Shown here piece after piece: positions 11,536-49,665 of a stretch of 64,000 nucleotides of DNA. The position numbers were made by a program, and so were the translations under genes. This DNA comes from an uncultured Alphaproteobacteria bacterium (GTDB lineage: Bacteria; Pseudomonadota; Alphaproteobacteria; Micavibrionales; UBA1664), in the NCBI GenBank assembly GCA_943789475.1, contig CALSUG010000001.1:111926-175925 (forward strand), in the 5' to 3' direction. Position 1 is the first letter of the stretch. Every line of letters starts with the position of its first letter. The notes under the pieces were generated by a model. That model searched no databases. It was given only the letters and a program-made list of their open reading frames with translations, and was not told the origin of the DNA.

Positions 11536-12075
11536 ATGTGCGTATTAAAAAAAGGGGTCAACGTGAGGTTCAAATTCTCCATCATCATAATTATGGCGGC
11601 TGCTGTTTTTTTAACAACGGCTCTAGTGAGCGATGCTGGGGCCCAACAAAGCAAACCAAAACTATCCCCCATCATTTTGGATAAAGATACTAGCGACCCT
11701 GAGGCTACTAAAATCGTAAAAAAACTGACCGCCAGTCTTTTTAAAAACCAATCCATAAAAATTAGTGACATTTACGCACAATATGTACCTTTAGAAAAAA
11801 AAGGTTCTCACGATAAATTCATAATCTCACATCTCTATGAACCTCCCCAAGGATGTTATGCTGCAGGTTGCCGTACCGCTATATTCAAATCCTCTGGAAA
11901 CAATAAATGGAAACTTGTTTTTTTAGCTTTTAGTGAAAATATTTGGTTTGATAAAACCTCTACAGAAACGAAAATAGCCAATTTAATATTTAAAAGCTCA
12001 GATAGAAGAAAACCTATCGCTGTTTGGATGTGGAATGGTGAAAAATATGAGTTAATTAAGGGAAAATATGAATAA
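11536..12075 (+). CDS. Small exported protein upstream of the transglycosylase
   Basis: About 179 residues with a signal peptide (FKFSIIIIMAAAVFLTTALV, cleavage near AGA-QQ). The mature part has a Cys pair (GCYAAGC) and a beta-rich pattern; no family was recognised. GGAAAGG precedes the ATG; a GTG at 11563 behind AAGGGG is an equally good start and gives a shorter n-region. Its stop lies 8 bases inside the next gene, so the two are translationally coupled. The position immediately before a cell-wall hydrolase suggests a periplasmic partner or inhibitor; that is inference. Confidence 0.65.
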   Translation: MCVLKKGVNVRFKFSIIIIMAAAVFLTTALVSDAGAQQSKPKLSPIILDKDTSDPEATKIVKKLTASLFKNQSIKISDIYAQYVPLEKKGSHDKFIISHLYEPPQGCYAAGCRTAIFKSSGNNKWKLVFLAFSENIWFDKTSTETKIANLIFKSSDRRKPIAVWMWNGEKYELIKGKYE

Positions 12076-13459: not shown

Positions 13460-13939
13460 ATGAAAAAATATAAATTTATTTTAAGTCTTATTTGCGCAAC
13501 CTCCTTGTTCGTTGGTATTAATGCACATTCTCAAGATATCAAGATGGTAGAATTCACAACACAGCCGTCAACAGTATTAAAAAAAGCTATTCGTAAAACA
13601 CTTAAAAACAAAATCGATAAATTCTACAAAGAGTATCAATACATCCCCTACCTACAATACGGTTTCGTTGATTTAAATTCCGATCGTAAAAATGAAATCG
13701 TTGTTCGATTTGCAGAAGAATACGAATTTAGAGACCGTCACAACAATATAGACACACATGTGTTCGCACAAACATCAAAGGGATTGGTTCAGATACTAGA
13801 AACACAAGCCTTTTCAATTGGTATTGGCCCACGTGATCATACTGCTCTTAATCAAATATATGCCTATAAGGGTAAATCGCAACGTCGATATGAACGGTTT
13901 GGTTGGGATGGAAAACGGGAGTACAAAAAAACAAAATGA
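13460..13939 (+). CDS. Small exported protein upstream of the M23-like hydrolase
   Basis: 159 residues with a signal peptide (KKYKFILSLICATSLFVGI, cleavage near AHS-QD). The mature part contains DLNSDRKNEIVVRF, like an FG-GAP/EF-hand-type calcium loop, and is basic at the end. No family was recognised. It starts 6 bases after the transglycosylase-like gene, and its stop overlaps the next start (ATGA). It occupies the same position relative to its hydrolase as the first small exported protein does, but the two show no clear sequence similarity. Confidence 0.65.
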   Translation: MKKYKFILSLICATSLFVGINAHSQDIKMVEFTTQPSTVLKKAIRKTLKNKIDKFYKEYQYIPYLQYGFVDLNSDRKNEIVVRFAEEYEFRDRHNNIDTHVFAQTSKGLVQILETQAFSIGIGPRDHTALNQIYAYKGKSQRRYERFGWDGKREYKKTK

Positions 13940-15288: not shown

Positions 15289-15471
15289 TGTGTGCCCTTG
15301 ATATTTTTAAGATCCATGAAACGAGTCAAGACATGCATCACTTGTTCCTTATCAACAGGTTCATCTTGTGTACGATGATCGCTCAATTGGTTTCTTAATG
15401 GCACGCATATTACGCAGAATTGATTCTTCTGCGGCTTTTCTTTTGTCTTTTTGACTAGGCACGTGTTTCAT
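15285..15471 (-). pseudogene. Small frameshifted ORF
   Basis: On the minus strand an ATG opens a basic peptide (MKHVPSQKDKRKAAEESIL) that stops after 36 codons. A second frame then runs on (NQLSDHRTQDEPVDKEQ, VLTRFMDLKNIKGTH) to a stop that overlaps the end of the M23-like gene. A single-base shift near 15400 would join them into about 60 residues. It resembles small basic proteins common in Alphaproteobacteria, but no family is claimed. Confidence 0.4.
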
Positions 15472-15515: not shown

Positions 15516-16805
15516 GTGATTACAAACATATATAAGACATTAAACTATCTTGCCTGGCCTGTATTACGCGCCCTTCCCACATTACGCTTGCGTGATGGAA
15601 AAGAAATAAAAGGCAGAACATCCGAGCGTTTTGGTATACCATCAACATCACGACCTGATAAAAAAGTTATTTGGTTTCATGCAGCCAGTAATGGTGAAAC
15701 ATTATCCGCTATTCCTCTTATCCATTCATTTCTTGAAAAAAATAGTGACCTCCACATCCTAATAACAACGATGACCGTTACCGCAGCACACCTTATTGAG
15801 CAACGCTTCGGTAATCATGAACATCTTACCCATCAATTCATTCCCTACGATCATCCATCATGGGTTAAACGCTTCCACAACCATTGGAAACCAGATATGG
15901 CTATTTGGGTTGAATCTGAATTATGGCCGAACCATTTAAATAAGCTAAAGGAAAACAATACCCCCTCCGTTCTCGTCAACGCACGATTATCAGATAAGAG
16001 TGTAAAAAGATGGTTCTGGGTAAATCATTTTTTTAAATCTATGATGTCATGCTTTGACATTATATTGGCGCAAACCGACCGTGATTTGAATAACTTAAAT
16101 ATCCTTGGCCTTAACAATGTCCAATCAATTGGTAATTTAAAAGACTTAGCCTCAGCACTTCCTTTTGACCCTGTTGCCGCCGATGATATTCGCCCTATCA
16201 TTGATGCCCGCACATCCATTTTATTCGCCAGCACACATGATCCTGAAGAAAGTATAGCTCGCGATATTCATGTTGAATTAAAAAAGAAACACCCAGACCT
16301 TCTCACCATCATCATCCCGCGCCATCCAAAGCGTGGAGAAGATATCGTAAACAGTTTGAATACAAGCGACCTGAATATTGCACGCAGATCACTAAGAATG
16401 TCCCCACGTACAAACACAGATATCTACGTCGCTGACACATTAGGTGAAATGGGATTATTTTACGATCTTTGCCCTATCGTGTTTGTTGGTAACTCTCTAG
16501 GTACAAAGCCAGGTGGTGGACACAATCTAATGGAGCCTGCATGGTTTAATTGCGCCATTATTTCTGGTGAAGATCTTCATAATTTTTCTGTTCTTGCTGA
16601 TGAAATGCCACAACAAAACGCATGCTTAATTGCAAAAAATAAGAATGAATTGTTAAATAAATTTAATAGCTTAATTAACAATGAGAATTTAAAAAATGAA
16701 CTATTAATTAATGCAAGAAAATATGTATCTCAAAAACAATCCAGTGGATTAAACGCCATCCTTAACGCCATTGATCCCACTTGTAAAAAAGCTAAAATTC
16801 TTTAA
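15516..16805 (+). CDS. waaA: KDO transferase
   Basis: 429 residues, membrane-associated GT-B glycosyltransferase that adds KDO from CMP-KDO to the lipid A precursor on the inner leaflet. Seen: N-terminal hydrophobic anchor (NYLAWPVLRALP), WFHAASNGETLSA with the catalytic Glu, AIWVESELWPN, and C-terminal donor site FVGNSLGTKPGGGHNLMEPA. The start is a GTG with AATAGGAC before it. It heads a run with lpxK and the acyltransferase. Confidence 0.92.
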   Translation: MITNIYKTLNYLAWPVLRALPTLRLRDGKEIKGRTSERFGIPSTSRPDKKVIWFHAASNGETLSAIPLIHSFLEKNSDLHILITTMTVTAAHLIEQRFGNHEHLTHQFIPYDHPSWVKRFHNHWKPDMAIWVESELWPNHLNKLKENNTPSVLVNARLSDKSVKRWFWVNHFFKSMMSCFDIILAQTDRDLNNLNILGLNNVQSIGNLKDLASALPFDPVAADDIRPIIDARTSILFASTHDPEESIARDIHVELKKKHPDLLTIIIPRHPKRGEDIVNSLNTSDLNIARRSLRMSPRTNTDIYVADTLGEMGLFYDLCPIVFVGNSLGTKPGGGHNLMEPAWFNCAIISGEDLHNFSVLADEMPQQNACLIAKNKNELLNKFNSLINNENLKNELLINARKYVSQKQSSGLNAILNAIDPTCKKAKIL

Positions 16806-16814
16806 ATTATCCCT

Positions 16815-17813
16815 ATGGTTAAAAAACAAATTCCACAATTTTGGTATGCATCCGAGGAAGAAACCTCTCCACTTGCAGCACTCCTACTCAAGCCGTTCAG
16901 CTTGTTATATCAAGGAATATCAACAACAAACCGCGCCATAACACGCACGCGAAAATCCCCCTTACCTGTCATCTGTATTGGAAATTTAACAATGGGTGGA
17001 GCTGGAAAAACACCGACAGCGCGCGCAATACATGATGTTGTTAAAGCCCAAGGAAAATTCGCAACACCTTGTTTTTTAATGCGTGGATATGGCGGCAAGA
17101 ACAAAGGCCCTATCGAGGTTGACCTTACCTCACACACATCATGGGATGTAGGTGATGAAGCGTTAATGCAGGCACGCTATGCCCCAACGATCGTTTCACG
17201 CAATCGATATGATGGTGCAAAATTGGCAAAAAAATTAGGATATGACATTATTATCATGGATGATGGTTTTCAAAATATGTCCCTCAAAAAAGATATATCG
17301 ATCATTGTTGTCGATGGTGGATTTGGCTTAGGCAATAAACAATGCTTTCCATCAGGACCATTACGCGAAACAGTTGAAAGCGGTTCTGCACGCGCAAGCG
17401 CTGCCCTTATCATAAACCGCACAGATATAACGAAAAACATCAATATCGGCACACTCAAACAATTTGATGCAGCCATAGAATTACAAGACACAGGCAAACC
17501 GAACAAAAACAAAAAAGTCATCGCCTTTGCAGGAATCGCACGCCCTGAAAAGTTTTTCAACACACTCGAAGAAAATGGTTACCATCTCCACGCACATTAT
17601 GGCTTTCCCGACCATGCAACATACACACACGGTCAACTCAATAAATTAATGTCACTTGCCGATAAAGAAGGCATTCCATTAATCACCACAGAAAAAGATT
17701 GGGTACGCCTATCCAAGAAATGGCAATCAAAAATATCTTACCTTAAAATTGCCATTAATTTAGATGATAAATTCCAAAACTACATCACAACAAAATTGGA
17801 TAATATCCCGTGA
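16815..17813 (+). CDS. lpxK: Tetraacyldisaccharide 4'-kinase
   Basis: 332 residues. It phosphorylates the 4' position of the lipid A disaccharide at the inner membrane. The N-terminal amphipathic helix (PFSLLYQGIS) is followed by the P-loop CIGNLTMGGAGKTPTA, then GDEALMQARYAPTIVS and IIIMDDGFQN. GFPDHATYT and TTEKDWVRL close the C-terminal domain. It lies 9 bases after waaA and overlaps the next gene (GTGA). Confidence 0.95.
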   Translation: MVKKQIPQFWYASEEETSPLAALLLKPFSLLYQGISTTNRAITRTRKSPLPVICIGNLTMGGAGKTPTARAIHDVVKAQGKFATPCFLMRGYGGKNKGPIEVDLTSHTSWDVGDEALMQARYAPTIVSRNRYDGAKLAKKLGYDIIIMDDGFQNMSLKKDISIIVVDGGFGLGNKQCFPSGPLRETVESGSARASAALIINRTDITKNINIGTLKQFDAAIELQDTGKPNKNKKVIAFAGIARPEKFFNTLEENGYHLHAHYGFPDHATYTHGQLNKLMSLADKEGIPLITTEKDWVRLSKKWQSKISYLKIAINLDDKFQNYITTKLDNIP

Positions 17814-18676
17814 AGAACATACGGTACTGGACTGAACACTTAACACTTCTGTCATTGCATGGTTTTTGTAAAATTTTACCGTGGAAAACAGCCTCAAATC
17901 TATTCGGGTGGATTGCTTGCACTATTGGTACACACATGGCAATGAACCGCAAGGCCGTACGCCACGTTCGTGCAGCTATGCAATGCGATCACGAAACAGC
18001 TAATCTAATTACCCGCAATCATTGGAATAATTTAGGTCGCGTTATGGCGGAATTCCCACACCTGAAAGATATTGCCGAATCTCATGTTGAATTTCGTGGT
18101 GAAGAACATCTTCGCGCTCTTAAAGATGACAATCAATGTGGCATTTTATTTGGCGCCCATATCGGAAATTGGGAAGTAATTCCCCACGCCTTACTTCACC
18201 ATTTTGATTTGGCAATGCACCCTGTCTATCGTGCACCCAACAACCCGATGGTCGATAAGAGATTACACAAATATAGATCTCCCGATGGTCGTCTTGTCCC
18301 CTATTCCAAATCTCGTAAAGGAATGGTTGGTATGGTTAAGGCATTAAAATCTGGCGAACATCTTGGCCTTCTTATCGATCAAAAATATAACGAAGGTGTC
18401 GACGCTCCATTTTTTGGCATGAGAGCACGTACAGGAACCGCCTTTATTGAATTATCACAAAAATACAAATGCCCACTTGTTCCTATACGATGCATACGTG
18501 AAGATAAAAAATTTATTATTGAGGCTTCTACCCCAATTCAAACACAAGATAGAGACACAATGGATGTACTCAATGATGCTCATACTATTTTAGAAGGATG
18601 GATCAAAGAAAACCCATCACAATGGTTGTGGGTTCACAAACGCTGGAAAGCAGAGGAATTAAGAAATGTCGCATAA
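17810..18676 (+). CDS. lpxL: Lipid A lauroyl/myristoyl acyltransferase
   Basis: 288 residues of the LpxL/HtrB family, which adds secondary acyl chains to KDO-lipid A. The catalytic HX4E motif is in FGAHIGNWEVIP; HPVYRAPNNPMVDKRLHKYR and LLIDQKYNEGVDAPFFG are family blocks. The C-terminal PSQWLWVHKRWK is typical. The start is a GTG overlapping the lpxK stop. Whether it works as LpxL, LpxM or another paralogue cannot be told from sequence alone. Confidence 0.85.
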   Translation: MKNIRYWTEHLTLLSLHGFCKILPWKTASNLFGWIACTIGTHMAMNRKAVRHVRAAMQCDHETANLITRNHWNNLGRVMAEFPHLKDIAESHVEFRGEEHLRALKDDNQCGILFGAHIGNWEVIPHALLHHFDLAMHPVYRAPNNPMVDKRLHKYRSPDGRLVPYSKSRKGMVGMVKALKSGEHLGLLIDQKYNEGVDAPFFGMRARTGTAFIELSQKYKCPLVPIRCIREDKKFIIEASTPIQTQDRDTMDVLNDAHTILEGWIKENPSQWLWVHKRWKAEELRNVA

Positions 18677-20009
18677 TTTTGACTACGATTATTTTGTTAT
18701 TGGTGCTGGATCAGGCGGGGTACGATCTGCACGTATAGCCGCATCACATGGCGCAAAGGTCGGTATTGCGGAAGGCCGTTTCATGGGAGGAACATGCGTC
18801 AATATTGGATGTGTTCCAAAAAAATTGATGGCCTATGCCGCGGATTATCATGCTCATTTCGAAGATGCTGCAGGATTTGGATGGTCAAAAGAAACGCCTT
18901 CATTTGATTGGTCAACACTCATCAAAAACAAAGATATCGAAATTAAACGATTGAATGGTATCTATAAAAACTTGCTCGGTAATGCTGACGTTACAATTCA
19001 TGGCGATTACGCATCATTCATTGATGAACACACATTGAAAATTGGTGATGAAACGATTACAGCCGATAAAATTCTCATCGCAACGGGTGGAACACCACGC
19101 CTACCAGACTTTGGCGGTGCAGAACACATGATCGTATCCGACGATGCGTTCTATCTTGAAAACTTGCCTGAGCATGTTGTCATTTATGGTGGTGGATATA
19201 TCGCGGTTGAGTTCGCACACATCTTCCATGGCCTGGGCGCAAAGGTTTCACTTATCTATCGTGGGGACATGTTCCTACGTGGATTTGATGATGATATTCG
19301 CGAACACCTCTATAAAGAAATGCAAAAACAAGGCGTCGAATTCCATTTCAACACAACGATTGAACATATTGAAAAATCACAACAACTCAATATCACCCTA
19401 TCCAACGGAAAAACAATCACAGCCGACGAAGCAATGGCGGCGATTGGCCGTGTGGCAAAAACAGATAACCTCAATCCATCAGCCGCGAATGTTGAATTAA
19501 ACGCCAATGGCACGATCAAAACGAATGATGGATACCAAACATCAACCGATAACATCTATGCCGTGGGTGATGTGACAGGTCGTGTTGAACTAACTCCTGT
19601 CGCGATTAAAGAGGGACACTGGTTGGCCGACACAATGTTTGGCAATATTGATCGCCCTGCCCCATCCTATGATAATATTCCAACGGCGGTGTTCTCACGG
19701 CCCAATATTGGAACGGTTGGCCTGAGCGAAGCACAAGCCCGCGCACAAGGTCATAATATCACCGTTTACAAATCGGATTTTAAACCCATGGTTCACACCC
19801 TATCCAAACGGGATGAACGCACATTCATAAAAATGATTGTCGATAATAAAACCGATAAAGTTTTAGGTATCCACATGGTTGGTTTGGATAGCCCCGAAAT
19901 GTTACAAGGGTTTGGCGTGGCGATTAAGGCCGGCGCGACAAAGGCCATATTTGATGAAACCATCGGCATTCACCCGACCAGCGCAGAAGAGCTGGTTACG
20001 ATGCGATAA
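18666..20009 (+). CDS. gor: Glutathione-disulfide reductase
   Basis: 447 residues, cytosolic FAD enzyme that regenerates glutathione with NADPH. FAD site VIGAGSGGVRSARIAA, redox disulfide GGTCVNIGCVPKKLM, nucleotide site VIYGGGYIAVEFAHIF, second FAD block IYAVGDVTG and the C-terminal catalytic His-Glu in IGIHPTSAEELVTMR are all present. It overlaps the acyltransferase gene by 11 bases and is followed by an intrinsic terminator. Confidence 0.93.
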   Translation: MSHNFDYDYFVIGAGSGGVRSARIAASHGAKVGIAEGRFMGGTCVNIGCVPKKLMAYAADYHAHFEDAAGFGWSKETPSFDWSTLIKNKDIEIKRLNGIYKNLLGNADVTIHGDYASFIDEHTLKIGDETITADKILIATGGTPRLPDFGGAEHMIVSDDAFYLENLPEHVVIYGGGYIAVEFAHIFHGLGAKVSLIYRGDMFLRGFDDDIREHLYKEMQKQGVEFHFNTTIEHIEKSQQLNITLSNGKTITADEAMAAIGRVAKTDNLNPSAANVELNANGTIKTNDGYQTSTDNIYAVGDVTGRVELTPVAIKEGHWLADTMFGNIDRPAPSYDNIPTAVFSRPNIGTVGLSEAQARAQGHNITVYKSDFKPMVHTLSKRDERTFIKMIVDNKTDKVLGIHMVGLDSPEMLQGFGVAIKAGATKAIFDETIGIHPTSAEELVTMR

Positions 20010-31897: not shown

Positions 31898-32107
31898 ATG
31901 GCAACAGGTACAGTAAAATGGTTTAATTCAACAAAAGGTTACGGGTTCATTACACCTGATGAAGGCGGACAAGATGTATTCGTACATATTTCTGCAGTTC
32001 AAGCAGCAGGCATGCAATCTTTAGAAGATAATCAAAAGCTTTCTTTTGAACTTCAAAATGACCCTGCAAAAGGCAAAACTTCTGCGGTAAATCTACAAGC
32101 TGCTTAA
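31898..32107 (+). CDS. cspA: Cold-shock protein
   Basis: 69 residues, single CSD/OB fold. RNP1 (KGYGFITP) and RNP2 (DVFVHISAV) are intact, following GTVKWFNSTKG. It acts as an RNA chaperone. AAAGGAGAT lies 8 bases before the ATG. Its own terminator is the hairpin at 32139 that the casposon split and duplicated. Confidence 0.96.
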   Translation: MATGTVKWFNSTKGYGFITPDEGGQDVFVHISAVQAAGMQSLEDNQKLSFELQNDPAKGKTSAVNLQAA

Positions 32108-32138: not shown

Positions 32139-32156
32139 CCCGCTATTTTTAGCGGG
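32139..32156 (+). repeat. Target site duplication, left copy (terminator hairpin)
   Basis: CCCGCTATTTTTAGCGGG is repeated in the same orientation at 39534-39551. It is a 7-bp stem with a TTTT loop. The loop is T-rich on the plus strand in both copies, so they form a direct repeat and are not part of the inverted repeat. Because the arms are palindromic, the true duplication could be 12, 14, 16 or 18 bp. Confidence 0.9.
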
Positions 32157-32250
32157 GGTATAGTGATAAGTTAGAAAGTTCTGAAATCTGACCATATTGA
32201 CTAGCTAGAATTGATTAAACCGCTATCAGAATGATAGCGGTTTTTTCTTT
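32157..32250 (+). repeat. Casposon terminal inverted repeat, left
   Basis: The first 71 bases match the reverse complement of 39463-39533 with one mismatch (A/G at base 13). The similarity continues, less exactly, through a hairpin and T run to 32250. It begins GGTATAGTGATAAG. Confidence 0.95.
32217..32246 (+). terminator. Terminator inside the left inverted repeat
   Basis: A 12-bp perfect stem (AAACCGCTATCA with TGATAGCGGTTT), loop GAA, then a T run on the plus strand. It faces transcription entering from cspA, whose own terminator lost its T tract on this side. It can also end the element's minus-strand transcript, but with a weaker tract (TTTAATC). Confidence 0.8.
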
Positions 32251-32257
32251 ATAAAGA

Positions 32258-33943
32258 TTAAGTAATCTTCAAGGTTCGTGATAAAGGCTTTTGTTTTTTA
32301 TCAGCTATTAACAAACCTCTTTTCTCAAGTAATGCAGTTGTATCTGGTAGCTTACCTGTGAAATTTTGAAATTGATTTAATGGAGATATAGTCGCACCCT
32401 TAGATAAGATATCTTCTCTAAATTTTTGTCCTGCATCTCGACTTCTTAACCCAGACTGTTCAAATACCTTGAATGCAGCAGTATCTAAAACAGATGACCA
32501 CATGTAAGAATAATAACCACAAGCATATCCACCCGCAAAAATATGCGCGAATGATGTGGTAGTGCATGCCCCATATGATGGCATAAGAGCAGCACGAGAC
32601 TTTATTGATTGCTCTATATCATATGCACCACTTTCGGGACTTGGTGTATAATAATTCCAAGCCAAATCGGTTTCAATTAATTGTAGTTGCCTTACCGTAC
32701 CGATAGCGTTCCCTGACTTTTGTGCCTCTTCTCTTGATCTTAATAATTTTAACGGTATGGTTTCACCAGTTTCATGATGCTTAGCGACTGATTGCACATA
32801 CTCAACATCATCAAGCCAGTTTTCCATTATTTGAGAAGGCAGTTCAACAAAATCCCATGGTACCGATGTGCCGCTCAAACTGTGAAATCTTGATTTACTG
32901 AGAAGCGTGTGTAAACCATGTCCCATTTCATGGTATAATGTTTTCGCTTGACCTACAGTTAATAAAATAGGCTCACCTTCACTCGGTTTAGATATATTCA
33001 TATTTATATCCGCAACTGGAAGGTTCGTTTTCCCATCTAATGTTTCATAGTGTCCAGCGATTTGATAAGCCCACGCCCCAACCTTTTTATGATCACGGGC
33101 AAATAAATCCATAGCAATATTACCAATAATACTACCGTCTTCATCATAAACGTCATAAGTAACTATGTCTTGCTGACTCTCTAAAGTTGAATAATCATCG
33201 TTTTGAACAAAACGAATGCCATAAAGATCGTTTAGTAAACCAAATAAACCTTGTTTGACTGATTCTAACTCTAAATAAGGCTTCATATCATTGGCGTCAT
33301 AATCGTAGTTTTCTTTTGTATGAAGCTTTGAATAATAACTCATATCCCATGGCTCGAATACTTCTAAACCATCTTGGGATTTTGCAAAATCTGCCAATTC
33401 AGATATCTCTGATTTCGCTGCATTAACGGCATAAGGATACATTTCTTCAACAAAATCTATAATGGCTTGAGGTGATTCAAGCATGCGATCATCCATTGCA
33501 TAGTCACCATGCGTTTTAAATCCCTTTAGGTTTGCACTTTTCTTGCGAATAGATGCTATCTCTTTTAAAATTTCATTATTATCGAATTCACCATCATTGC
33601 AACGTGTGGAATAAGCTCTCCACATTCTTTCTCTAAGGCTTCTATTGGTCGCATTGCCCATTATTTCTAAGTAGTCATAGGGTTGTAAATTAAATAGCCA
33701 ACCATCTTTCTCATTATCTGTTGCACGTTCTTTCGCTCTATCAATTACATCACTCGGAATGCCGTCTAGCTCTTCTAGTGATTTAACTGCTATCAATGTA
33801 TCGTTAGTTGCACGCGTGACATTCTCACGAAATTTAACAGCCAATTCTGATAATCTGTTGCTTAAGTTTTCTAATTCTTTCTTTTGTTCATCAGACAAAA
33901 GAGCACCGTTGTTAACGAAACTGGTTTGATTGTTTTTAAATGC
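32258..33943 (-). pseudogene. M3 family oligopeptidase, 5'-truncated
   Basis: The frame encodes the C-terminal three quarters of an M3 (Dcp/PrlC-like) thimet oligopeptidase. The zinc site is intact: LYHEMGHGLH (His323, Glu324, His327 counted from the TTG at 33898) with the third ligand in FVELPSQIMENW. About 540 residues remain of a usual 680 or so. Homology starts abruptly at SFVNNGALLSDEQKK just after an in-frame TAG, and there the frame overlaps the polB 3' end. No ATG is near; a TTG is the first usable start. Probably a captured host gene fragment. Whether it is translated is unknown; the C-terminal catalytic region could fold. Confidence 0.8.
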
Positions 33944-36333
33944 CTATCTGATTGCATGCACAGTAAAAAATTAAAAGGGCGAACACGATCATTATAACTC
34001 CTATCGGCGTTATAAATATTAAACCATCTCTCTAATATGGGTTTTGTTGCACCATATCGGCTAACAGCAGGTGTATTGAAGTTTTTCAGACTTTGATAAT
34101 CAGGATGTCTATTTCCAAGTGAGGCACTAATAATTTCAAACCATAAATCTTGTTGCCATGGTTGAGCATCTTCTAAATTTTTAATATCAGGGCTTTGATA
34201 GGGTGCGATTAAATGGCCTAATCCATGGGATGATACCTTTCTTAAAACAGGTTTCCCGTTGTTATCTAAATTATATAATGCGTATCTTTTGGATGATACG
34301 GCATGACAATAAAGAGGCTCTAAATCATCCTTATTATCTCGGCTATAATTATAATCTTCGATTTTAAGTAGTGGTGATTTATTTTTTGAATAGGGATTCA
34401 AAGGCGTAAACCATTCCGAAATTGAAAAGGATCGATTATAAAAATCATCTTGTGTCATGTTATGGGGTTTTGCCAAGGCCATACTATCGGTATCACAAAA
34501 TGCCCAATCTAAACCCGCCTCAATCGCTAGATGTTCCGTTGTTGCAAGCATCAAACGTGCCGCGCCCGTTATTAATGTCGCTAAAAGAGGATGAAAAAAT
34601 GTCCCTGCTTTTTCAAACTTATTCTTTTCTAAATGGTTTGGAGTGCCGTTATAACCGTTACAGATTAATTTCTGCTTTAACTTTTCTTCTTCAACATTTA
34701 ATTCAACAAAAATACCGTAACTTGTCGCATTGGCCAAAATTTTAAGTGCCTGTTGCTGATTATCTAAAATATCTTTCTCAAATGGCGTTGCTGTTTTGAT
34801 TTTGTCTTTAACCGCACTTCGCAAATCAATAGTCGTTTTGAAAAGATCGTCTTCATAAGGGTTCACGATATAATCTTGATTACCTGCAACACAAATAGAT
34901 TTCAAGTCTTCTTGCGGTGAACACGGTGTGAATGAAATTGCTTTTATTATTTCAGGTGTTTTCCCTGTTAAAATCTGAGATGAAATACAATCAGCAAGCG
35001 TAAACCATAAATTTTCATCACTCGTTAAATAGTTTAATCCGATTGTATATTGAGCATCGCCACCATATTTTGCACGTACAGGAAATATATCACTATCAGG
35101 CTTAATTTTAACAAGCGTGGTTAATAATTTCCACGTATCAGGATTTTGTAAATCGGATATTTTAAAATCATTAAAGAATGTTTTTGTTTCTATCGTGCTG
35201 TCATAATAATTCATGCCTTGTGATGTTACAAATCGCCATAACCCCATGAGTGTGCAAACTGTTGGATACATGGATAGAAAGTCACAATATAGAATTTGCG
35301 TTGGTGTTTTTCGAATATGCACTTCCGAACGCCCACCAAAATAAGAACTCATGATGTTCCCAATAAGATCATCAGGGAAATCAGGTTGCATTTTTTGCCA
35401 TGGTTGAATGCCCATATCGCGTAAATAGGCTTTGCCCAAACTGGCCTCGCTATGAATATTATGTGATGACGTCAATTTCAATCCATGTAAATCATAGAGC
35501 TTTTGAAGCTTTGTATAGCATTGCCAAGTTGTTTCAGTATCGCGCACCGCATATTCGATATAATCGGCTGTTAGTGCTTTGCCGTGATCATCCGTTAATT
35601 GTTTCAATGCATCAACACTCAAAGATTTAGCCAATGAATCAAGTGTATGTGATTGACTGGTCAATGCCGCCGCTAATGTTTTAACATCAATAAAAAAGCC
35701 ACGGCGAATAGGATTTTTTCGTTTTTTCTTGCGATTGGGTTTTGATGTTCTTTGTCCTTTGGGTGTTGTAAATTGAATAAATGAATTACGCGCGGACATA
35801 TGCTTGATTTGTACCCTTGGATAAAAATCATTCTCGATTAATTTAAACGTAAATCCACCCTGCATTAATTTATTGTGTTTTGTTGTTCGTGCCTCGGCAT
35901 GATCAATTGCCAAACGTGAAATATCGAAAGGTAAATTAAATCCAACAATACGAGAGCGATATTTATAACCAACACCAAAAAATATCTTTTTGATAAATTC
36001 AGCAACCGTCAAAATAGTTAAATTATTTTGCGTTGCACATTCTTTAAGGGTTCTAATTTCACCCTCTGTTAAAACGTCTTCATCGTAAAAAATACCTTTA
36101 TGCGTTATCACGTCACCTTTACGCACTTGATATGTTCCAAATCGCAATTTTTGTGACGCATCAATTGTAGTTTCAGTATCAAAGATTAATGTCCAACAAG
36201 ATGGTTCGGGTCGTTTGCGCGCGGATTTCTTCTGTGTCGTCGGTGACGCGGCTGTTATTGGATCATTTTTTGTGACATAGGCACGCAACGCAATTGGCAA
36301 ATCTTCACTTATCGGAATATTTTGATTACCCAT
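33871..36333 (-). CDS. polB: Family B DNA polymerase of the casposon
   Basis: 820 residues. Exonuclease: Exo I IFDTETT (Asp52, Glu54), Exo II GFNLPFD (Asn133, Asp137), Exo III YAVRD (Tyr261, Asp265). Polymerase: motif A CDFLSMYPTV (Asp351), motif B KILANATSYG (531-540), motif C FCDTDS (Asp614, Asp616). It likely copies the element during or after transposition. The ATG overlaps the HNH stop by 8 bases. The last 17 or so residues (from about VSLTTVLF) come from M3 peptidase DNA read in another frame, so the native C-terminus was lost at the fusion. Confidence 0.93.
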   Translation of the reverse strand: MGNQNIPISEDLPIALRAYVTKNDPITAASPTTQKKSARKRPEPSCWTLIFDTETTIDASQKLRFGTYQVRKGDVITHKGIFYDEDVLTEGEIRTLKECATQNNLTILTVAEFIKKIFFGVGYKYRSRIVGFNLPFDISRLAIDHAEARTTKHNKLMQGGFTFKLIENDFYPRVQIKHMSARNSFIQFTTPKGQRTSKPNRKKKRKNPIRRGFFIDVKTLAAALTSQSHTLDSLAKSLSVDALKQLTDDHGKALTADYIEYAVRDTETTWQCYTKLQKLYDLHGLKLTSSHNIHSEASLGKAYLRDMGIQPWQKMQPDFPDDLIGNIMSSYFGGRSEVHIRKTPTQILYCDFLSMYPTVCTLMGLWRFVTSQGMNYYDSTIETKTFFNDFKISDLQNPDTWKLLTTLVKIKPDSDIFPVRAKYGGDAQYTIGLNYLTSDENLWFTLADCISSQILTGKTPEIIKAISFTPCSPQEDLKSICVAGNQDYIVNPYEDDLFKTTIDLRSAVKDKIKTATPFEKDILDNQQQALKILANATSYGIFVELNVEEEKLKQKLICNGYNGTPNHLEKNKFEKAGTFFHPLLATLITGAARLMLATTEHLAIEAGLDWAFCDTDSMALAKPHNMTQDDFYNRSFSISEWFTPLNPYSKNKSPLLKIEDYNYSRDNKDDLEPLYCHAVSSKRYALYNLDNNGKPVLRKVSSHGLGHLIAPYQSPDIKNLEDAQPWQQDLWFEIISASLGNRHPDYQSLKNFNTPAVSRYGATKPILERWFNIYNADRSYNDRVRPFNFLLCMQSDRHLKTIKPVSLTTVLFCLMNKRKN

Positions 36334-36673
36334 AATGTAACCGATCTTGTGCGCTTTGGATTAAATATTGTCCGTATTCCTTTAATCGTTCAACTAAGAG
36401 TTCGAAAAAATCAGCAAGCCCAATTAACAAATGTCCAATATTTTCGAGTGTTATATTTTCGGCACTTATTTTCTTGGGATGATCATATTGTGAATCGCTT
36501 AATTTACGGTGACAATTGCGGCATACGTTACATAGATCATCACCATAATGTTGACCTGCAATATGATGTTGCTCAAGGCACTCCCAACTATCTTCACCGC
36601 ATATAATGCAAGTGGGATAATTAGAGCCTAAAGTTTCAAGGCGTTTTTGTTTACGTGCTTCTTTATCATTCAT
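36326..36673 (-). CDS. HNH endonuclease of the casposon
   Basis: 115 residues from the ATG preceded by AAGGAGAAAAA. It has an HNH core: CIICGED, CLEQHHIAGQHYGDDLCNVCRNCHRKLSD, with two Cys pairs for a structural zinc. HNH nucleases accompany Cas1 and PolB in many casposons; the role in transposition is not settled. A longer frame to 36769 is rejected because of the strong internal ribosome site. It overlaps polB. Confidence 0.9.
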   Translation of the reverse strand: MNDKEARKQKRLETLGSNYPTCIICGEDSWECLEQHHIAGQHYGDDLCNVCRNCHRKLSDSQYDHPKKISAENITLENIGHLLIGLADFFELLVERLKEYGQYLIQSAQDRLHYG

Positions 36674-36686
36674 GTTTTTTCTCCTT

Positions 36687-37277
36687 CTAAATAATGATGC
36701 GATAAACTTGTTCAAATGATTCATTGCCACTCGTCGCAATGCGATAGAGTGAATTTGGATTTGTTTCAAAAATATAGATTTTGTTTTTTTGATCTTTGAT
36801 AGATTTGCCGATAAATGGCTTTAAATGTTTAATATCATTCGTGCGTAAAAATCTTTTAACGCCCGCCATATAACGCCCTAACTTAGAGGCATAATGAAAC
36901 TTATCAATGATTATAGGTGTCGCTTCACCATCGCTATAAATAAGCATTTTGCGAGGTAGGGTGTTTTTTACAATCCAACGGTTGCCCTTTTTACGAATTG
37001 CTCCTAATTGTCTAGCTTGGTTGCGTAATCGTTGCGGTGATACACGGATTTCTTTTGCGGCGTCCGATAAAGAATTACCCTCGCGTAAAGATTTCAAACT
37101 GATTTGTAATTTATTATCGGCAATCGGTTTAGACTTACCAACATAGTTTTCATTGGCTTTAGGATGTCCTCGCGCTTGCGATAGAGATAATCCTCTCGCC
37201 GTACCACGTGCAATGCGTCTTTTATATTCTGCGGCGTAATCGCGTTTTTTACCCTTGGATTTTGTTTTTACCGTCAT
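36687..37277 (-). CDS. HTH protein of the casposon
   Basis: 196 residues, basic. An N-terminal KRDYAAEYKRRIARGTARGLSLSQARGHP segment, found in many phage and plasmid proteins, precedes a helix-turn-helix (about 58-82, LREGNSLSDAAKEIRVSPQRLRNQARQLG). The C-terminal part may bind DNA or the end complexes. It is 13 bases upstream of the HNH gene. A regulator or TIR-binding role is inference. Confidence 0.75.
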   Translation of the reverse strand: MTVKTKSKGKKRDYAAEYKRRIARGTARGLSLSQARGHPKANENYVGKSKPIADNKLQISLKSLREGNSLSDAAKEIRVSPQRLRNQARQLGAIRKKGNRWIVKNTLPRKMLIYSDGEATPIIIDKFHYASKLGRYMAGVKRFLRTNDIKHLKPFIGKSIKDQKNKIYIFETNPNSLYRIATSGNESFEQVYRIII

Positions 37278-37384
37278 AATTAACCTTTAATTCTCATTCA
37301 AGAATCAAAAGTAAATCAGATATAAACCTCGATAAATGTCACAAAAATAGAAATAATTTTGAGGGTATTTTTGAGGATGGTTTT

Positions 37385-38182
37385 TTAAAAATATTTACGA
37401 ATAGTTCGCCTTATAGTTTCGTCAGATAGTCCTTTGTCGTTAGCATCAGGATACAATATCTCTATAGCATTACGAATATGTGAGTAATGAGATTGAATGG
37501 AGTGATCGCGTATTATTTTTCCGTCAGCATCTAATTTTTTAAACGCATCTTCGATCATCACCTTTTTTGAGGGGCGACCTCGTGTAATATATGGCTCTTT
37601 ATCAGGAAGGGGAGCATTTTGTTTTTTATTCAAAATATTCCACCGATAATAGTCGGTTGCTGTTTCTAAAAACTCTTTTAAAAGCACTTGTTCAGAAATT
37701 TGAAAACTTGAGTCCTTTTTATAGGGAAAATCTAAAGTTTTTCCCGTCCAAATGTGGTGGTACTCAAAAAGATAAAATAATGCCTCTAAAAATATATCTT
37801 TTTTCAAATTAGATATCTTAAATAATTCATCAATCGATACAGAATCATCAAGGCGTTTTTTATATAAATCAGGAAGCAGTGAATATATTTCAGACATAGC
37901 CTTTAATAAAGCTTTTGATTTATTTATTTCAATTAAAGGCAATGCATATGATTTTAATAAATAAAAATCTTTGTTTTCAATTCGCTCAATATAAATAAAT
38001 TGATACTCATGCTGTAAAGTATCTAACAACACCATATGTTTGGGGTTATTTGCACGGTATCTTTTTTTCTCAACACGCGGCGGTTCACTATCTAAATGAA
38101 TAAATATATTTTTTAAGCACTCTAAAATATCGCTCCCTAATATTTCTTTTGCACTTTCTATATCTTGCAAATAATTATTCAA
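37385..38182 (-). CDS. Unknown casposon protein
   Basis: 265 residues between cas1 and the HTH gene; no family recognised. Mostly helical and charged; the last 55 residues (SYHS-like block, then GLSDETIRRTIRKYF) look like a DNA-binding or winged-helix end, and TRGRPSKKVMIEDAFKKL resembles the linker before such domains. Possibly a target or end-recognition factor. About 100 bases separate it from the HTH gene, so it may have its own promoter. Confidence 0.6.
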   Translation of the reverse strand: MNNYLQDIESAKEILGSDILECLKNIFIHLDSEPPRVEKKRYRANNPKHMVLLDTLQHEYQFIYIERIENKDFYLLKSYALPLIEINKSKALLKAMSEIYSLLPDLYKKRLDDSVSIDELFKISNLKKDIFLEALFYLFEYHHIWTGKTLDFPYKKDSSFQISEQVLLKEFLETATDYYRWNILNKKQNAPLPDKEPYITRGRPSKKVMIEDAFKKLDADGKIIRDHSIQSHYSHIRNAIEILYPDANDKGLSDETIRRTIRKYF

Positions 38183-38229
38183 ATTTAAAATACCGTTATT
38201 ATTATTTTCTTTTTAAAAATATAACGGAA

Positions 38230-39384
38230 TTATAGATTGATTTGAATGTTTTTACCGACTAATTGCTTAATAACCTTATTTGTTACTGTATTTATTTCAG
38301 GAATATCATACATTAATTTCACAACATATCGCGCAAATTGAGGATGTAGCCTGCATACGCCATTTTTATTTAATGTAAAATCGTCTGGTGCAAATGTACG
38401 GCTAAGAACAAATTCTAAAATATGTTGATCTATCAAAGGGCGCAATGGCTCCATAATATCAAATATAAGGGATGTGCGATCTTTGGTATTAGAGTGCATA
38501 TATCCAATGGTGGGATCAAGCCCTGCGGCAACAACATAACCTCGAACTTGGTTTTCAAGAATAGCGTAAGCGTAATTTAAAATGGCATTAACAGGGTGAT
38601 TGGCTAATTGATTGCTTTTACCACCTCGACCATATCCAATACGCGTACCGATATTTTCCCATTCTGGTGGAATATGTTTGCGATTTAATCCACGCCATTT
38701 AAGAGGTAAGGTGTACCAATACCGAAAATAAGCCGCCGCCGCAATTCCCTCTACTGCAAGTAATGAAGCTAAGTTACAGGGTGGATTATTTTTGATCTTA
38801 GTTTCTTGTTCTTTAATTTTTGTCAATATTGGCTTTGCCGTATCGCAATTATCAGATATTTTTTTAATTGTTTGATATGAATTTTTAATTTTTTGTAAAA
38901 CAACCCATTTTGAAAATTCAAAACCATTATCTTTTACTTGGATTTCTAATTGCCGGTTTACCAATTTGGTATCGGCGGCATAGTAAGTATTACCAATGGA
39001 TGAAACATGACCTTGCCAGTCAATTTGAATAAGAGGCACGCCTTGATCCGATAACCATTGAAGGGCATTAAAACTCAAACTGCCGTCACCATCCAATATA
39101 ACAATACGAGAGGGTAATTGGCGATCATTTGGAAAGAAACGGTATTCTTCTCGTATTTGAGGATAATGAGTAAAGCCGCATTTAATAAGTAATGTATCTC
39201 TATCAATATTTAATTTGATACCATGACCACTTAATATAAGAGGTTTATGAATGATACGGCGTTTGCGAGCTGTATATTGTGGGATTGGATTTATCTTTTT
39301 TAACCAATAATCACCTCTATCTGACCACTCATTATCATTCGATATATCGTTATCAATATTCAATTTTAATTGTGCTTTTGTCAT
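38230..39384 (-). CDS. cas1: Cas1 family casposase
   Basis: 384 residues. The Cas1 all-helical catalytic domain is clear: LLAVEGIAAAAYFRYW (Glu212), HPVNAILNYAYAILENQVRGYVVAAGLDPTIGYMH (His297), and SLIFDIMEPLRPLIDQ (Asp309, Glu312). The N-terminal beta domain includes FPNDRQLPSRIVILDGDGS. It is the metal-dependent integrase that joins the element ends to the target. Length and the extra N-terminal 45 residues fit casposases more than CRISPR Cas1. It is the first gene of the element, about 50 bases inside the right inverted repeat. An upstream TTG would add 5 residues. Confidence 0.95.
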   Translation of the reverse strand: MTKAQLKLNIDNDISNDNEWSDRGDYWLKKINPIPQYTARKRRIIHKPLILSGHGIKLNIDRDTLLIKCGFTHYPQIREEYRFFPNDRQLPSRIVILDGDGSLSFNALQWLSDQGVPLIQIDWQGHVSSIGNTYYAADTKLVNRQLEIQVKDNGFEFSKWVVLQKIKNSYQTIKKISDNCDTAKPILTKIKEQETKIKNNPPCNLASLLAVEGIAAAAYFRYWYTLPLKWRGLNRKHIPPEWENIGTRIGYGRGGKSNQLANHPVNAILNYAYAILENQVRGYVVAAGLDPTIGYMHSNTKDRTSLIFDIMEPLRPLIDQHILEFVLSRTFAPDDFTLNKNGVCRLHPQFARYVVKLMYDIPEINTVTNKVIKQLVGKNIQINL

Positions 39385-39437
39385 GGTTATTTGTAGCAAA
39401 AACCGAACAATAAAACCACTTCAAACCGTTAATACAC

Positions 39438-39533
39438 AAAGAAAAAAACCGCCATCAATAAAGATAGCGGTTTAATCAATTCTAGCTAGTCAATATGGTC
39501 AGATTTCAGAACTTTCTAACCTATCACTATACC
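39438..39533 (-). repeat. Casposon terminal inverted repeat, right
   Basis: Reverse complement of the left repeat: 70 of 71 bases in the outer part, then a related but diverged hairpin and T run. It ends at the right copy of the target duplication. Confidence 0.95.
39442..39473 (-). terminator. Terminator inside the right inverted repeat
   Basis: On the minus strand ACCGCTATC pairs with GATGGCGGT, then seven T. One pair is G-U on the minus strand RNA and a C-A mismatch on the plus strand, so it favours minus-strand termination. It faces transcription coming in from the prophage baseplate genes. Confidence 0.75.
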
Positions 39534-39551
39534 CCCGCTATTTTTAGCGGG
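39534..39551 (+). repeat. Target site duplication, right copy
   Basis: Identical to 32139-32156 and in the same orientation. Here it keeps the T tract (GTTTTTTAAT) of the old terminator, while the left copy keeps the A tract (TCTAAAAC). Joining the two flanks rebuilds one complete bidirectional intrinsic terminator. Confidence 0.9.
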
Positions 39552-39572
39552 TTTTTTAATCTCGAAATAATT

Positions 39573-40463
39573 TCATTTCACGAACGGAACATATGTTGCA
39601 CGTGTAAAGCTGATATCAACATCAAACCCCTCATCATCACGAACAGGTATTGTGGTATCGCCACACGTACCAACACCGCCTGTTTTTTTCTTATATATAG
39701 CATCCGCAATTTCACTATCACTACCACCATCGACAATTACCGCAACAGAATGAGACGGAATCGTATAGTTTTGAACTGTTACATCCTCACCTTTATCATT
39801 GTCACGCCCTATAACATCAGAAACACCCTCTATACGTTTAATTGCACCAACAATAGACCCAACAATTGTTAATGCGTTTTTTTCTCTTTGTGCCTTGTAC
39901 TGTGTTCTATAAGAAGCATCTTGTTCGACATCTCGCCCTAATATCGCATCATCAGTGTTTAAAACAGTTTCCCACCCTAGAACTAAATCAACAATTTGTG
40001 AAAGCTCACCTGTTGCCGCTGGAACAACCCCAGCCTCAACGCTATACATCGTTGCAGCTGCACTCCCGTTACTCTCCAGTTGAACATCTTCATCCAACTG
40101 AAACATATCTCCATCTTGTGTTTTCGCTCTACTCCCAGCAGGAATGAGCGTTGAAGGTAATCCGTTCAAAATTACAGGTGTAAGCGATCTTTCTTTATCG
40201 CGCCTTGAAACACCTAAAACATTCGCAATTCCATCAATTTGCAAGCCATAAGCTTGATCAATATCATTCGCACTCGCAACAGCAACTATCGCATCATCTG
40301 ATTGAGATAATGACTGTGCTAAAATACCAATGATTTGTCCCTGTGGTGTTTCGCTATCTAAATCTATATTTTCACCAAAGGCACTTTTGAAAGCACCCTC
40401 AAGTTTTTCAATATATCCTTCTAAGCTTGTAGCTTGAACGCCTGTATCAGTTATTTTAGCCAT
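39573..40463 (-). CDS. Baseplate J-like protein, C-terminally short
   Basis: 296 residues. N-terminal EKLEGAFKSAFGENIDLDSETPQGQIIGILAQSLSQ and the central domain with LVLGWETVLNTDDAILGRDVEQDASYRTQYKAQRE are hallmarks of the Mu gp47/P2 J family, a baseplate wedge part. The frame ends at FDVDISFTRATYVPFVK, where relatives usually continue for perhaps 60-80 residues. The stop lies 22 bases from the casposon target copy, so the phage module appears cut there before the casposon arrived. Confidence 0.85.
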   Translation of the reverse strand: MAKITDTGVQATSLEGYIEKLEGAFKSAFGENIDLDSETPQGQIIGILAQSLSQSDDAIVAVASANDIDQAYGLQIDGIANVLGVSRRDKERSLTPVILNGLPSTLIPAGSRAKTQDGDMFQLDEDVQLESNGSAAATMYSVEAGVVPAATGELSQIVDLVLGWETVLNTDDAILGRDVEQDASYRTQYKAQREKNALTIVGSIVGAIKRIEGVSDVIGRDNDKGEDVTVQNYTIPSHSVAVIVDGGSDSEIADAIYKKKTGGVGTCGDTTIPVRDDEGFDVDISFTRATYVPFVK

Positions 40464-49221: not shown

Positions 49222-49665
49222 TTATTCGTCTCCCTCAATCATACCTTTATAAGCCTCGGCTTGATCCTTTGCGAATGGTCCATGAACTTTTTCTTCTTGA
49301 TCCATGACATACCATTTACCACCACCGCGATGTTCAACATGGTGAACTTCTGGATCAAAAACGAATTCATCAACTTCATCAACTTCATCAACTTCATCAA
49401 CTTCATCAACTTCATCAACTTCATCAACTTCATCAACTTCATCAACTTCATCAACTTCATCAACTTCATCAACTTCATCAACTTCATCAATGATGACCGC
49501 TTCGCCCTCAATCATGTCAAATGATTTTTCAAGGTGAGCCTTTCCAGCCGGATAGGATGCAAACGCTTCATACGCCTCATCAGTTAGGTTAACCGTACCC
49601 TGTGAGGGTACGATTTCACCATTAATAACGATGGGTGCATTTGTTTTATTCAAAAGCACTGGCAT
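49222..49665 (-). CDS. Phage protein with acidic VDE tandem repeat
   Basis: 147 residues. Residues about 59-100 are 14 copies of a three-residue acidic unit (first I-D-E, then V-D-E), encoded by a perfect 9-bp DNA repeat. An N-terminal beta domain (MPVLLNKTNAPIVINGEIVPSQGTVNL) and a C-terminal GGGKWYVMDQEEKVHGPFAKDQAEAYKG domain frame it. It sits between the capsid and the connector; role unknown. Confidence 0.75.
   Translation of the reverse strand: MPVLLNKTNAPIVINGEIVPSQGTVNLTDEAYEAFASYPAGKAHLEKSFDMIEGEAVIIDEVDEVDEVDEVDEVDEVDEVDEVDEVDEVDEVDEVDEVDEFVFDPEVHHVEHRGGGKWYVMDQEEKVHGPFAKDQAEAYKGMIEGDE
49366..49482 (+). repeat. 9-bp tandem repeat, 13 perfect copies
   Basis: TTCATCAAC is repeated 13 times without change, then a fourteenth copy ends in T instead of C. 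It is in frame in the phage gene on the minus strand. Copy number is likely to change by slippage. Confidence 0.95.

What the first reader, a model, noticed from the sequence alone, without database searches (positions are those of the whole stretch)
32139..39551. A complete casposon in an alphaproteobacterial chromosome
Solo Cas1 with intact catalytic residues, a family B DNA polymerase with all Exo and Pol motifs, HNH and HTH genes lie inside near-perfect long inverted repeats (70/71 bp) flanked by an 18-bp direct repeat. There is no cas2 and no CRISPR array. Casposons are best known from archaea, and rare in bacteria. The intact ends and duplication suggest recent movement.
Basis: partly seen in the sequence, partly recalled or inferred. 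Interest (0 to 1): 0.95.

Follow-up and report, generated by a model that had tools for sequence, protein, structure and literature searches.

The report
Casposon landed in a terminator hairpin
A bacterial chromosome carries a transposon that encodes a relative of the CRISPR enzyme Cas1 and sits inside the duplicated terminator hairpin of a cold-shock gene; in 28 of 35 such elements whose ends could be read the duplicated landing site is a palindrome able to form a hairpin, so these enzymes likely choose hairpins as targets, which may explain why CRISPR repeats are palindromic.

Summary
In detail: 32139-39551 is a casposon, with solo Cas1, PolB, HNH- and HTH-like genes inside inverted repeats (70/71) flanked by an identical 18-bp direct repeat; the genome has no Cas2 and no second Cas1. 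It is not complete: PolB lacks a conserved C-terminal ~210-220 aa and abuts an M3 peptidase that lacks its N-terminal part, a likely deletion scar. Alphaproteobacterial casposons have been known since 2014.

The new part is the landing site. The direct repeat is the intrinsic-terminator hairpin of the upstream cold-shock gene, and relatives keep that terminator with no element. Ends could be called in 28 of 60 loci; 22 of 28 target duplications are palindromic (p<0.01 against host windows; 17 of 28 by folding energy), 19 exactly centred on the hairpin axis. Loci fetched later gave 6 of 7. Nine of the 28 are plain terminators, including those of rpsD, rpsI, greA, ilvC, pckA and folE; some others resemble dispersed palindromic repeats. 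Casposons of this clade therefore likely target hairpins, a rule not stated in the papers I could see. It fits a published model in which CRISPR repeats descend from casposase target sites. No wet-lab test was done.

The parts
31898..32107 (+). cold-shock protein gene (cspA-like), the host gene upstream of the insertion
   Evidence: PF00313 E 1.6e-24; DNA matches in 4 of 7 relatives
32139..32156 (.). left copy of the target duplication: terminator hairpin of the cold-shock gene, now without its T-tract
   Evidence: 18/18 identical to right copy; folds; loop in direct orientation
32157..32227 (.). left terminal inverted repeat, begins GGTATAGTGATA
   Evidence: 70/71 to right TIR; only two copies in genome
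32217..32243 (+). terminator-like hairpin at the inner end of the left TIR, facing into the element
   Evidence: 12 pairs plus T-run; fold z -5.7
32258..33898 (-). M3 family peptidase, N-terminal part missing (546 aa; 656-750 aa in 117 of the 119 other listed homologs)
   Evidence: PF01432 E 8e-111; homolog lengths
33871..33905 (.). junction where polB 3' part and peptidase 5' part are both missing; likely deletion scar
   Evidence: PolB homology ends at about aa 806 of 820; ORFs overlap here
33871..36333 (-). family B DNA polymerase, Exo and Pol motifs present, C-terminal ~210-220 aa with HTH absent
   Evidence: PF00136 over its cut-off, PF03175 just under; motifs; P0122, P0123, P0124, P0126 are 1016-1028 aa at 69-85% identity; HTH in relatives
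36326..36673 (-). HNH-type nuclease gene (115 aa from the ATG shared with L007)
   Evidence: CxxC...HH...CxxCH seen by eye; no Pfam hit for the window protein, HNH_2 only at E 0.15 in the L007 ortholog
36687..37277 (-). 196-aa HTH-like protein
   Evidence: found in 50 of the 56 loci (window included) with a PolB match; HTH_17 only at E 0.067 in the L007 ortholog
37385..38182 (-). 265-aa conserved protein of unknown fold; among 80 loci held only here, in L007 and L008
   Evidence: tblastn; no Pfam hit
38230..39399 (-). solo Cas1 (casposase), 389 aa
   Evidence: PF01867; best PDB match 6OPM, the M. mazei casposase, E 1.8e-22
39446..39473 (-). terminator-like hairpin at the inner end of the right TIR, facing into the element
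   Evidence: 11 pairs plus T-run; fold z -6.4
39463..39533 (.). right terminal inverted repeat
39534..39557 (+). right copy of the target duplication plus the original T-tract (TTTTTT): reads as an intact intrinsic terminator

Best explanation
This is a casposon of the bacterial (family 3) type, a Cas1-carrying transposon, whose Cas1 integrase likely joined the two inverted-repeat ends to opposite strands at symmetric points of the intrinsic-terminator hairpin of a cold-shock gene, so that the hairpin now stands as an 18-bp direct repeat at each end. Shown by sequence: the gene set, the ends, the duplication, the undivided terminator in relatives, and a palindromic landing site in most of the relatives whose ends could be read. 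Inferred: that Cas1 is the enzyme that did it; that recognition is of the palindrome or its extruded hairpin rather than of a fixed sequence; that gap repair made the duplication; and that the terminators at the inner ends of the TIRs (32217-32243 and 39446-39473) keep transcription from the cold-shock gene and from the neighbouring prophage out of the element after the target terminator was split. The true duplication may be 14-18 bp, since the CCC/GGG ends of the target run into the G-rich TIR ends. The element probably also suffered a deletion that removed the end of polB and the start of a peptidase cargo gene, so it would now need help from elsewhere to replicate.
For: Element. Empty sites for the window: the cold-shock genes of G001, G003, G006 and G004 are followed by a hairpin with no element; the first three have a T-run. 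A second empty site: rpsD of G006, same genus as G005, keeps its terminator where G005 carries element L009; G007 and G001 also show a hairpin with T-run there, G004 one without; the split G003 match was not examined. Rule: 22 of 28 target duplications are palindromic at p<0.01 against random host windows of the same locus; the hairpin axis falls exactly on the middle of the duplication in 19 of 28; of loci fetched afterwards 6 of 7 are palindromic and 5 of 7 exactly centred. Over 35 targets complementarity extends about 5 bp outside the duplication (63-74% at positions -1 to -5, 23% at -6) with varied pair types. Nine of 28 are hairpins with a neighbouring A- or T-tract, against 25 of 404 host-flank hairpins. 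The repeat is not its own reverse complement in any of the 28, so two identical copies mean a duplicated target, not TIR tips. Prior chemistry: M. mazei casposase acts as a tetramer and accepts a symmetrised 14-bp target (PMC6977970, passages); CRISPR Cas1 of Sulfolobus binds stem-loop DNA without sequence specificity (PMC9456107, passages).
Against: Six of 28 targets miss p<0.01: L014, L037, L072 and L076 look non-palindromic, L026 and L044 form only imperfect or G-T hairpins. By folding energy only 17 of 28 reach p<0.01 and 21 p<0.05. In the later set L150 reaches only p 0.04, and L153 and L164 are elements partly similar to L051 and L032 of the first set, at other sites. The outermost pair is C-G in 29 of 35 targets, so a symmetric CC...GG sequence preference is not excluded. 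Ends could be called in only 28 of 60 loci with both arms. The terminator comparison pools genomes of different GC content. The one archaeal duplication whose letters I saw, M. mazei, is not a palindrome, so hairpin use is not common to all casposons. No biochemistry was done.
Confidence: 0.85

Rival explanations
1. The palindrome is the outer tip of the element's own inverted repeats, as Krupovic et al. wrote of 'internal palindromic sequences' in some TIRs, and not part of the target.
For: A palindrome at both tips would look like both a direct and an inverted repeat; PMC4046053 reports palindromes within TIRs.
Against: The two copies are identical in direct orientation while none of the 28 equals its own reverse complement. 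The palindromes differ between elements with similar TIR starts (window, L007, L009). Relatives without the element carry a terminator at the same place.
Confidence: 0.04
2. Casposons of this clade insert anywhere between genes, and terminators are merely where insertions do no harm and survive.
For: Seven identified sites lie 24-59 bp after the stop codon of a host gene, among them rpsD, rpsI and greA.
Against: Survival alone would not place the duplication exactly on the hairpin axis (19 of 28 at offset 0.0), nor favour dispersed palindromes without terminator tails.
Confidence: 0.08
3. The enzyme reads a symmetric sequence motif (5'-CC...GG-3') about 14-18 bp wide with two-fold symmetry, and hairpin formation is incidental.
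For: The outermost pair is C-G in 29 of 35 targets. M. mazei casposase uses a CGCA motif and accepts a symmetrised target (PMC6977970).
Against: Inner pairs (positions 3-6) are complementary in 70-77% and pairs outside the duplication in 63-74%, with CG, GC, AT and TA all seen over the whole range, which a fixed outer motif does not require.
Confidence: 0.3
4. A stranded CRISPR adaptation gene or domesticated Cas1, not a mobile element.
For: Cas1 family membership. In the tree the M. mazei casposase falls with the two CRISPR references, on long branches, so the tree does not separate the two kinds.
Against: No Cas2 and no second Cas1 in the genome, perfect target duplication and TIRs, PolB and casposon-type neighbours shared with relatives.
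Confidence: 0.01
5. The M3 peptidase is working cargo and PolB is functional as an 820-aa protein, so the element is autonomous.
For: The Pfam M3 domain is whole (2-456 of 457) and both frames are open. Shorter PolB relatives are also listed, such as P0125 with 688 aa at 86% identity over 83% of the query, which may be a fragment or a truncated protein.
Against: 117 of the 119 other listed M3 homologs have 656-750 aa; P0122, P0123, P0124 and P0126 have a 1016-1028-aa PolB and the tail with an HTH is seen in P0122 and L007; both losses meet at one junction.
Confidence: 0.12

Closest known systems
Family 3 casposons (HenMar-C1, NitAL212-C1, StrAlb-C1, AceAut-C1; PMC4046053, parts 1-3 of 6 of the text read)
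   Same: bacterial host, solo Cas1 without added domains (as HenMar-C1), PolB, HNH-type and HTH-like genes, TIRs, target duplication; Cas1 is related to Henriciella and Hyphomonas loci
   Different: landing site is a terminator hairpin, where print says only 'intergenic' (PMC6614799); PolB truncated; M3 peptidase piece; a 265-aa protein seen only in three loci held
Methanosarcina mazei MetMaz-C1 (PMC10359463 and PMC6977970, passages)
   Same: TIR begins GGGATATAG against GG(GG)TATAG here; 14-bp duplication, compatible with 14-18 bp here; best PDB match of this Cas1 is its casposase 6OPM
   Different: targets the tRNA-Leu 3' end and needs upstream tRNA sequence; its duplication ATAATCTTAATGCG is not a palindrome
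CRISPR Cas1-Cas2 integration into repeats
   Same: Cas1 chemistry; the target is a palindromic repeat that is duplicated (PMC4940900, passages)
   Different: needs Cas2 (recalled); inserts 30-40-bp fragments, not a 7-kb element
Tn7 (comparison made in PMC4046053)
   Same: inserts downstream of an important gene without breaking it
   Different: here many different genes are used and the hairpin appears to be recognised; Cas1 instead of TnsABC and TnsD

Membership tests
casposon | solo Cas1 with catalytic residues, not linked to CRISPR | tested here: met
   a genome-wide array search was not done
casposon | family B DNA polymerase gene | tested here: met
   C-terminal ~210-220 aa missing, so probably damaged
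casposon | terminal inverted repeats | tested here: met
casposon | target site duplication (with an empty site in relatives) | tested here: met
casposon | mobility by Cas1 | not testable with these tools
   needs an integration assay
family 3 casposon | bacterial host and Cas1 in the bacterial casposon clade | tested here: inconclusive
   groups with bacterial loci that carry PolB and TIRs; HenMar-C1 itself and families 1 and 4 were not in the tree, and the M. mazei casposase fell with the CRISPR references on long branches
family 3 casposon | HNH nuclease and conserved HTH gene | tested here: inconclusive
   HNH by motif only, Pfam E 0.15 in ortholog; HTH E 0.067; same gene order in L007
family 3 casposon | no C-terminal HTH on Cas1 (a family 2 trait) | tested here: met
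   389 aa, Pfam hit to 361, no HTH hit at E 0.01
family 3 casposon | PolB of the RNA-primed type rather than protein-primed (family 1) | not tested
   no PolB tree was made; Pfam hits are PF00136 and, under its cut-off, PF03175
CRISPR-Cas adaptation module | Cas2 in the genome | tested here: not met
   0 of 1 genome; control rang in 7 of 14
intrinsic terminator (target site) | GC-rich hairpin followed by a T-run, just after a stop codon | tested here: met
   right copy plus TTTTTT; 31 bp after the cold-shock stop in the rejoined site; fold z -5.7

The most novel reading that the evidence does not exclude
Bacterial casposases are hairpin-seeking integrases: they recognise extruded DNA palindromes, chiefly intrinsic terminators and dispersed palindromic repeats, cut symmetrically about the hairpin axis and duplicate it, and CRISPR repeats are palindromic because the ancestral casposase already used palindromes as its target.
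Probability: 0.38. Interest if true: 0.9.

Novelty: new variant of a known kind. Interest (0 to 1): 0.67.

Why it matters
The machinery is that of a known kind; what is new is the landing site, which print gives only as 'intergenic' for families 3 and 4 (PMC6614799). A published model holds that the CRISPR repeat derives from the site preferred by the casposase (PMC6977970, passage), yet the one archaeal duplication whose letters I saw (M. mazei) is not a palindrome, whereas CRISPR repeats are described as palindromes that are duplicated on integration (PMC4940900). A clade of casposons that duplicates palindromes would supply that step and makes it testable. It also points to a safe-site strategy, terminators after important genes, that is not tied to one gene, and to an integrase that might be aimed by placing a hairpin.

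Tried and rejected
Considered and dropped: palindrome as TIR tip; chance repeats (mismatched-arm control 0,0,1,0,0,0,2,0,0,2 hits of 60); CRISPR remnant; a second genomic copy of the inverted repeat. A scan of IMG/VR gave 1 relative among 15 candidate stretches, a Cas1 cut by the contig end (L117), not used. Plasmids gave 1 partial hit in 72,556 records. Literature searches for casposase with cruciform and for insertion sequences at rho-independent terminators gave no paper. That TIRs carry inward terminators is not a general rule: 6 of 28 elements have them at both ends and 7 at one, against 4.5% of random one-strand windows. The tree shows no single gain of palindrome use (3 changes needed; all 500 shuffles as low), and in it the M. 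mazei casposase falls with the two CRISPR references on long branches, so it does not decide ancestry.

Rows dropped before counts: of 80 loci (79 plus the window) one (L085) had no Cas1 match by tblastn; 60 had both arms over 500 bp, and 32 of these gave no repeat call. In the tree 55 of 80 loci were kept, with Cas1 matches under about 290 residues left out; L026 and L044 were labelled palindromic there although they miss p<0.01. Of 21 regions fetched were taken as contigs of the first set by equal contig length and dropped; 11 were left, of which 7 gave calls, among them a 1.9-kb remnant, L159. From the fragments in G516 and the already known G142 and G144-G148 were not fetched.
Full report
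The element. Window 32139-39551 holds an 18-bp direct repeat, CCCGCTATTTTTAGCGGG, at each end. Inside it are inverted repeats that agree at 70 of 71 positions. The element carries, all on the minus strand, cas1 (389 aa), a 265-aa conserved gene, a 196-aa HTH-like gene, an HNH-type gene, polB and an M3 peptidase. Cas1 has E217, H302 and E317 invariant in an alignment of 26; in the alignment these face the columns that correspond to the E-H-E site of the M. mazei casposase (E162, H232, E247; PMC6977970 passage; the 17-residue numbering offset is my count). Its best solved relative is that casposase, 6OPM, at E 1.8e-22, ahead of CRISPR Cas1 proteins at 3.8e-13 or weaker. The genome (G000, 1.97 Mb, 9 contigs) has one Cas1, no Cas2 (control 7 of 14) and only these two copies of the inverted repeat. 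An array search was not done.

Not complete. PolB homology stops near residue 806 of 820, though the four motif blocks looked for are present. Close relatives continue for about 210-220 residues with a conserved block and an HTH: P0122 has 85% identity and 1027 aa, P0124 83% and 1028 aa, L007 68% and 1016 aa. One close relative, P0125, is listed with only 688 aa (86% identity over 83% of the query), and others further down are also shorter; fragments and real truncations cannot be told apart there. The neighbouring M3 peptidase has a whole M3 domain but is 546 aa where 117 of the 119 other listed homologs have 656-750, so its N-terminal part is missing. Both losses meet at about 33.9 kb, which reads as one deletion (inferred). 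The listed homologs are at most 40% identical. No M3 match was found in any of the other 79 loci as held.

Relatives. One scan of species genomes with the Cas1 alignment gave 79 loci, 53 of them titled as Alphaproteobacteria, the rest Nitrosomonas, Chloroflexi, Armatimonadetes, unnamed Proteobacteria and others; some are short fragments. Of the 80 loci with the window, 56 have a PolB match and 50 of these the 196-aa gene. The M. mazei casposase and two CRISPR Cas1 references lie together on long branches in that tree, so it says which loci are near, not whether casposon and CRISPR lines separate. Henriciella marina and Nitrosomonas were among the bacterial (family 3) casposons of 2014 (PMC4046053, parts 1-3 of 6 read). 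So a casposon in an alphaproteobacterium is not itself new.

The landing site in the window. The 18-bp repeat begins 31 bp after the stop codon of a cold-shock gene (PF00313). It is a hairpin, with AAAA before the left copy and TTTTTT after the right copy. The rejoined site folds at -17.6 kcal/mol, z -5.7. A simple scan finds the right copy with its T-run as a terminator but not the left copy, which has lost it (11 sites found, 5.0 expected). Four of seven relatives in the family gave a match to the cold-shock region, and none has an element just after the gene: G001, G003 and G006 show a hairpin with a T-run, G004 a hairpin without one. The repeat is not its own reverse complement, so two identical direct copies are a duplicated target and not tips of the inverted repeats.

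The rule in relatives. Of 80 loci, 60 have both arms longer than 500 bp, and a direct repeat next to matching inverted ends was called in 28. Pairing left arms with right arms of other loci gave 0-2 calls per 60 in ten rounds. For 22 of 28, the stem in the duplication plus 4 bp on each side is matched by under 1% of random windows from the same host flanks. The hairpin axis coincides exactly with the middle of the duplication in 19 of 28 and lies within 1.5 bp in 22, the weak fold of L076 included. By folding energy the result is weaker: 17 of 28 at p<0.01 and 21 at p<0.05. Misses of the stem test are L014 (Microvirga, TIR GGGATATAG as in M. mazei), L037, L072, L076, and the imperfect hairpins L026 and L044.

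A second look with new loci. Two further searches gave matches in 21 of 398 and 5 of 396 genomes. Of the 11 new ones, 7 gave calls; 6 of 7 are palindromic at p<0.01 and 5 of 7 exactly centred. L153 and L164 are partly similar in DNA to L051 and L032, so the sets are not wholly independent. Together 28 of 35.

What kind of palindrome. Nine of the 28 are hairpins with an A- or T-tract next to them, against 25 of 404 hairpins in host flanks; a tenth target, L076, has the tract without a hairpin. Seven follow identified genes: the window's cold-shock gene, ilvC (L007), rpsD (L009), rpsI (L022), pckA (L017), folE (L039) and greA (L047), by Pfam, at 24-59 bp from the stop. The other two are L023 and L042. 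rpsD of G006, same genus as G005, keeps an undivided terminator where G005 carries L009. Some others look like dispersed repeats: the arms CCCTCTCC...GGAGAGGG occur 32, 20, 3, 4, 4, 6 and 4 times in the seven genomes of L028, L045, L049, L019, L036 with L040, L026 and L046, with 0 for the reversed control pattern in each; three or four copies are thin evidence of a repeat family.

Structure or sequence. Over 35 targets, positions 0-6 inside the duplication are complementary in 70-86% (position 7: 4 of 10), and positions 1-5 outside in 63-74%, dropping to 23% at position 6. Pair types vary except at the outer edge of the duplication, where C-G dominates (29 of 35). The simplest reading is recognition of a palindrome about 26 bp wide with a liking for C at the cut points; a pure CC...GG motif is possible but does not predict the rest.

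How it likely works (inferred). The M. mazei casposase is a tetramer on its target and accepts a symmetrised 14-bp site (PMC6977970, passages). CRISPR Cas1 of Sulfolobus binds stem-loops without regard to sequence (PMC9456107, passages). A Cas1 that binds a palindrome would attack both strands at equal distance from its axis; repair doubles the hairpin. The insertion parts the left hairpin from its T-tract, but the left TIR carries its own terminator 60 bp further in, and the right TIR one facing the other way, so read-through into the element would be limited. Inward TIR terminators are not universal (6 of 28 at both ends, 7 at one, background 4.5%).

What is known. The passages that I saw speak of tRNA genes (family 2), gene 3' ends (family 1) and 'intergenic regions' (families 3 and 4; [quoted passage not shown] Searches for casposon with terminator (7 papers), with palindrom and target site (32 papers, 20 listed), with stem-loop (11) and casposase with cruciform (0) showed no statement of the rule. 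Of these papers I saw passages of PMC6614799, PMC9939771, PMC10359463, PMC4940900 and PMC9456107, three of six parts of PMC4046053, and the rest as listings only; PMC6977970 was seen in passages and has no 'palindrom', 'hairpin' or 'cruciform'. The 2016 mobility paper and two casposase papers are not held and supplements could not be read, so novelty is provisional. PMC6977970 proposes that the CRISPR repeat derives from the site preferred by the casposase, which the present rule would extend.

Noticed in passing
window 39573-40463 and rightwards: Prophage-like genes whose tail module stops at a shortened baseplate J gene (296 aa; the matching phage flopper gene spans 1158 bases, 385 aa, and is followed by further tail genes). 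The break lies about 15 bp from the cold-shock terminator. Other genes of the prophage were read by eye only.
   Followed up: partly
window 12068-13453 and 13903-15288: Two 461-aa ORFs with different N-terminal domains but, by eye, almost identical C-terminal halves of roughly 230 residues, suggesting duplication or conversion with domain exchange.
   Followed up: no
window 49366-49490: Perfect 9-bp tandem repeat, 13.9 copies, inside a phage-region ORF coding for a D-E-V repeat.
   Followed up: no
G000:C5:72317-73922 (L101): The genome's other M3 peptidase gene is split between two frames near its 3' end, while the casposon carries a different, shortened M3 peptidase.
   Followed up: partly
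L007:7918-9741, 16253-17227, 17308-19149: Other genes inside the nearest full element: an AAA_15/AAA_21 ATPase, a DUF4238 protein and a protein with a weak KAP NTPase match, possibly defence genes.
   Followed up: partly
L009:9172-15485: Looks composite: a third inverted-repeat copy at 12840-12888 and a cas1 fragment at 15225-15329, without a PolB match.
   Followed up: partly
L076:9723-10863 and L159: Short TIR-bounded remnants of 1.1 and 1.9 kb with cas1 fragments, perhaps on the way to non-autonomous elements.
   Followed up: no
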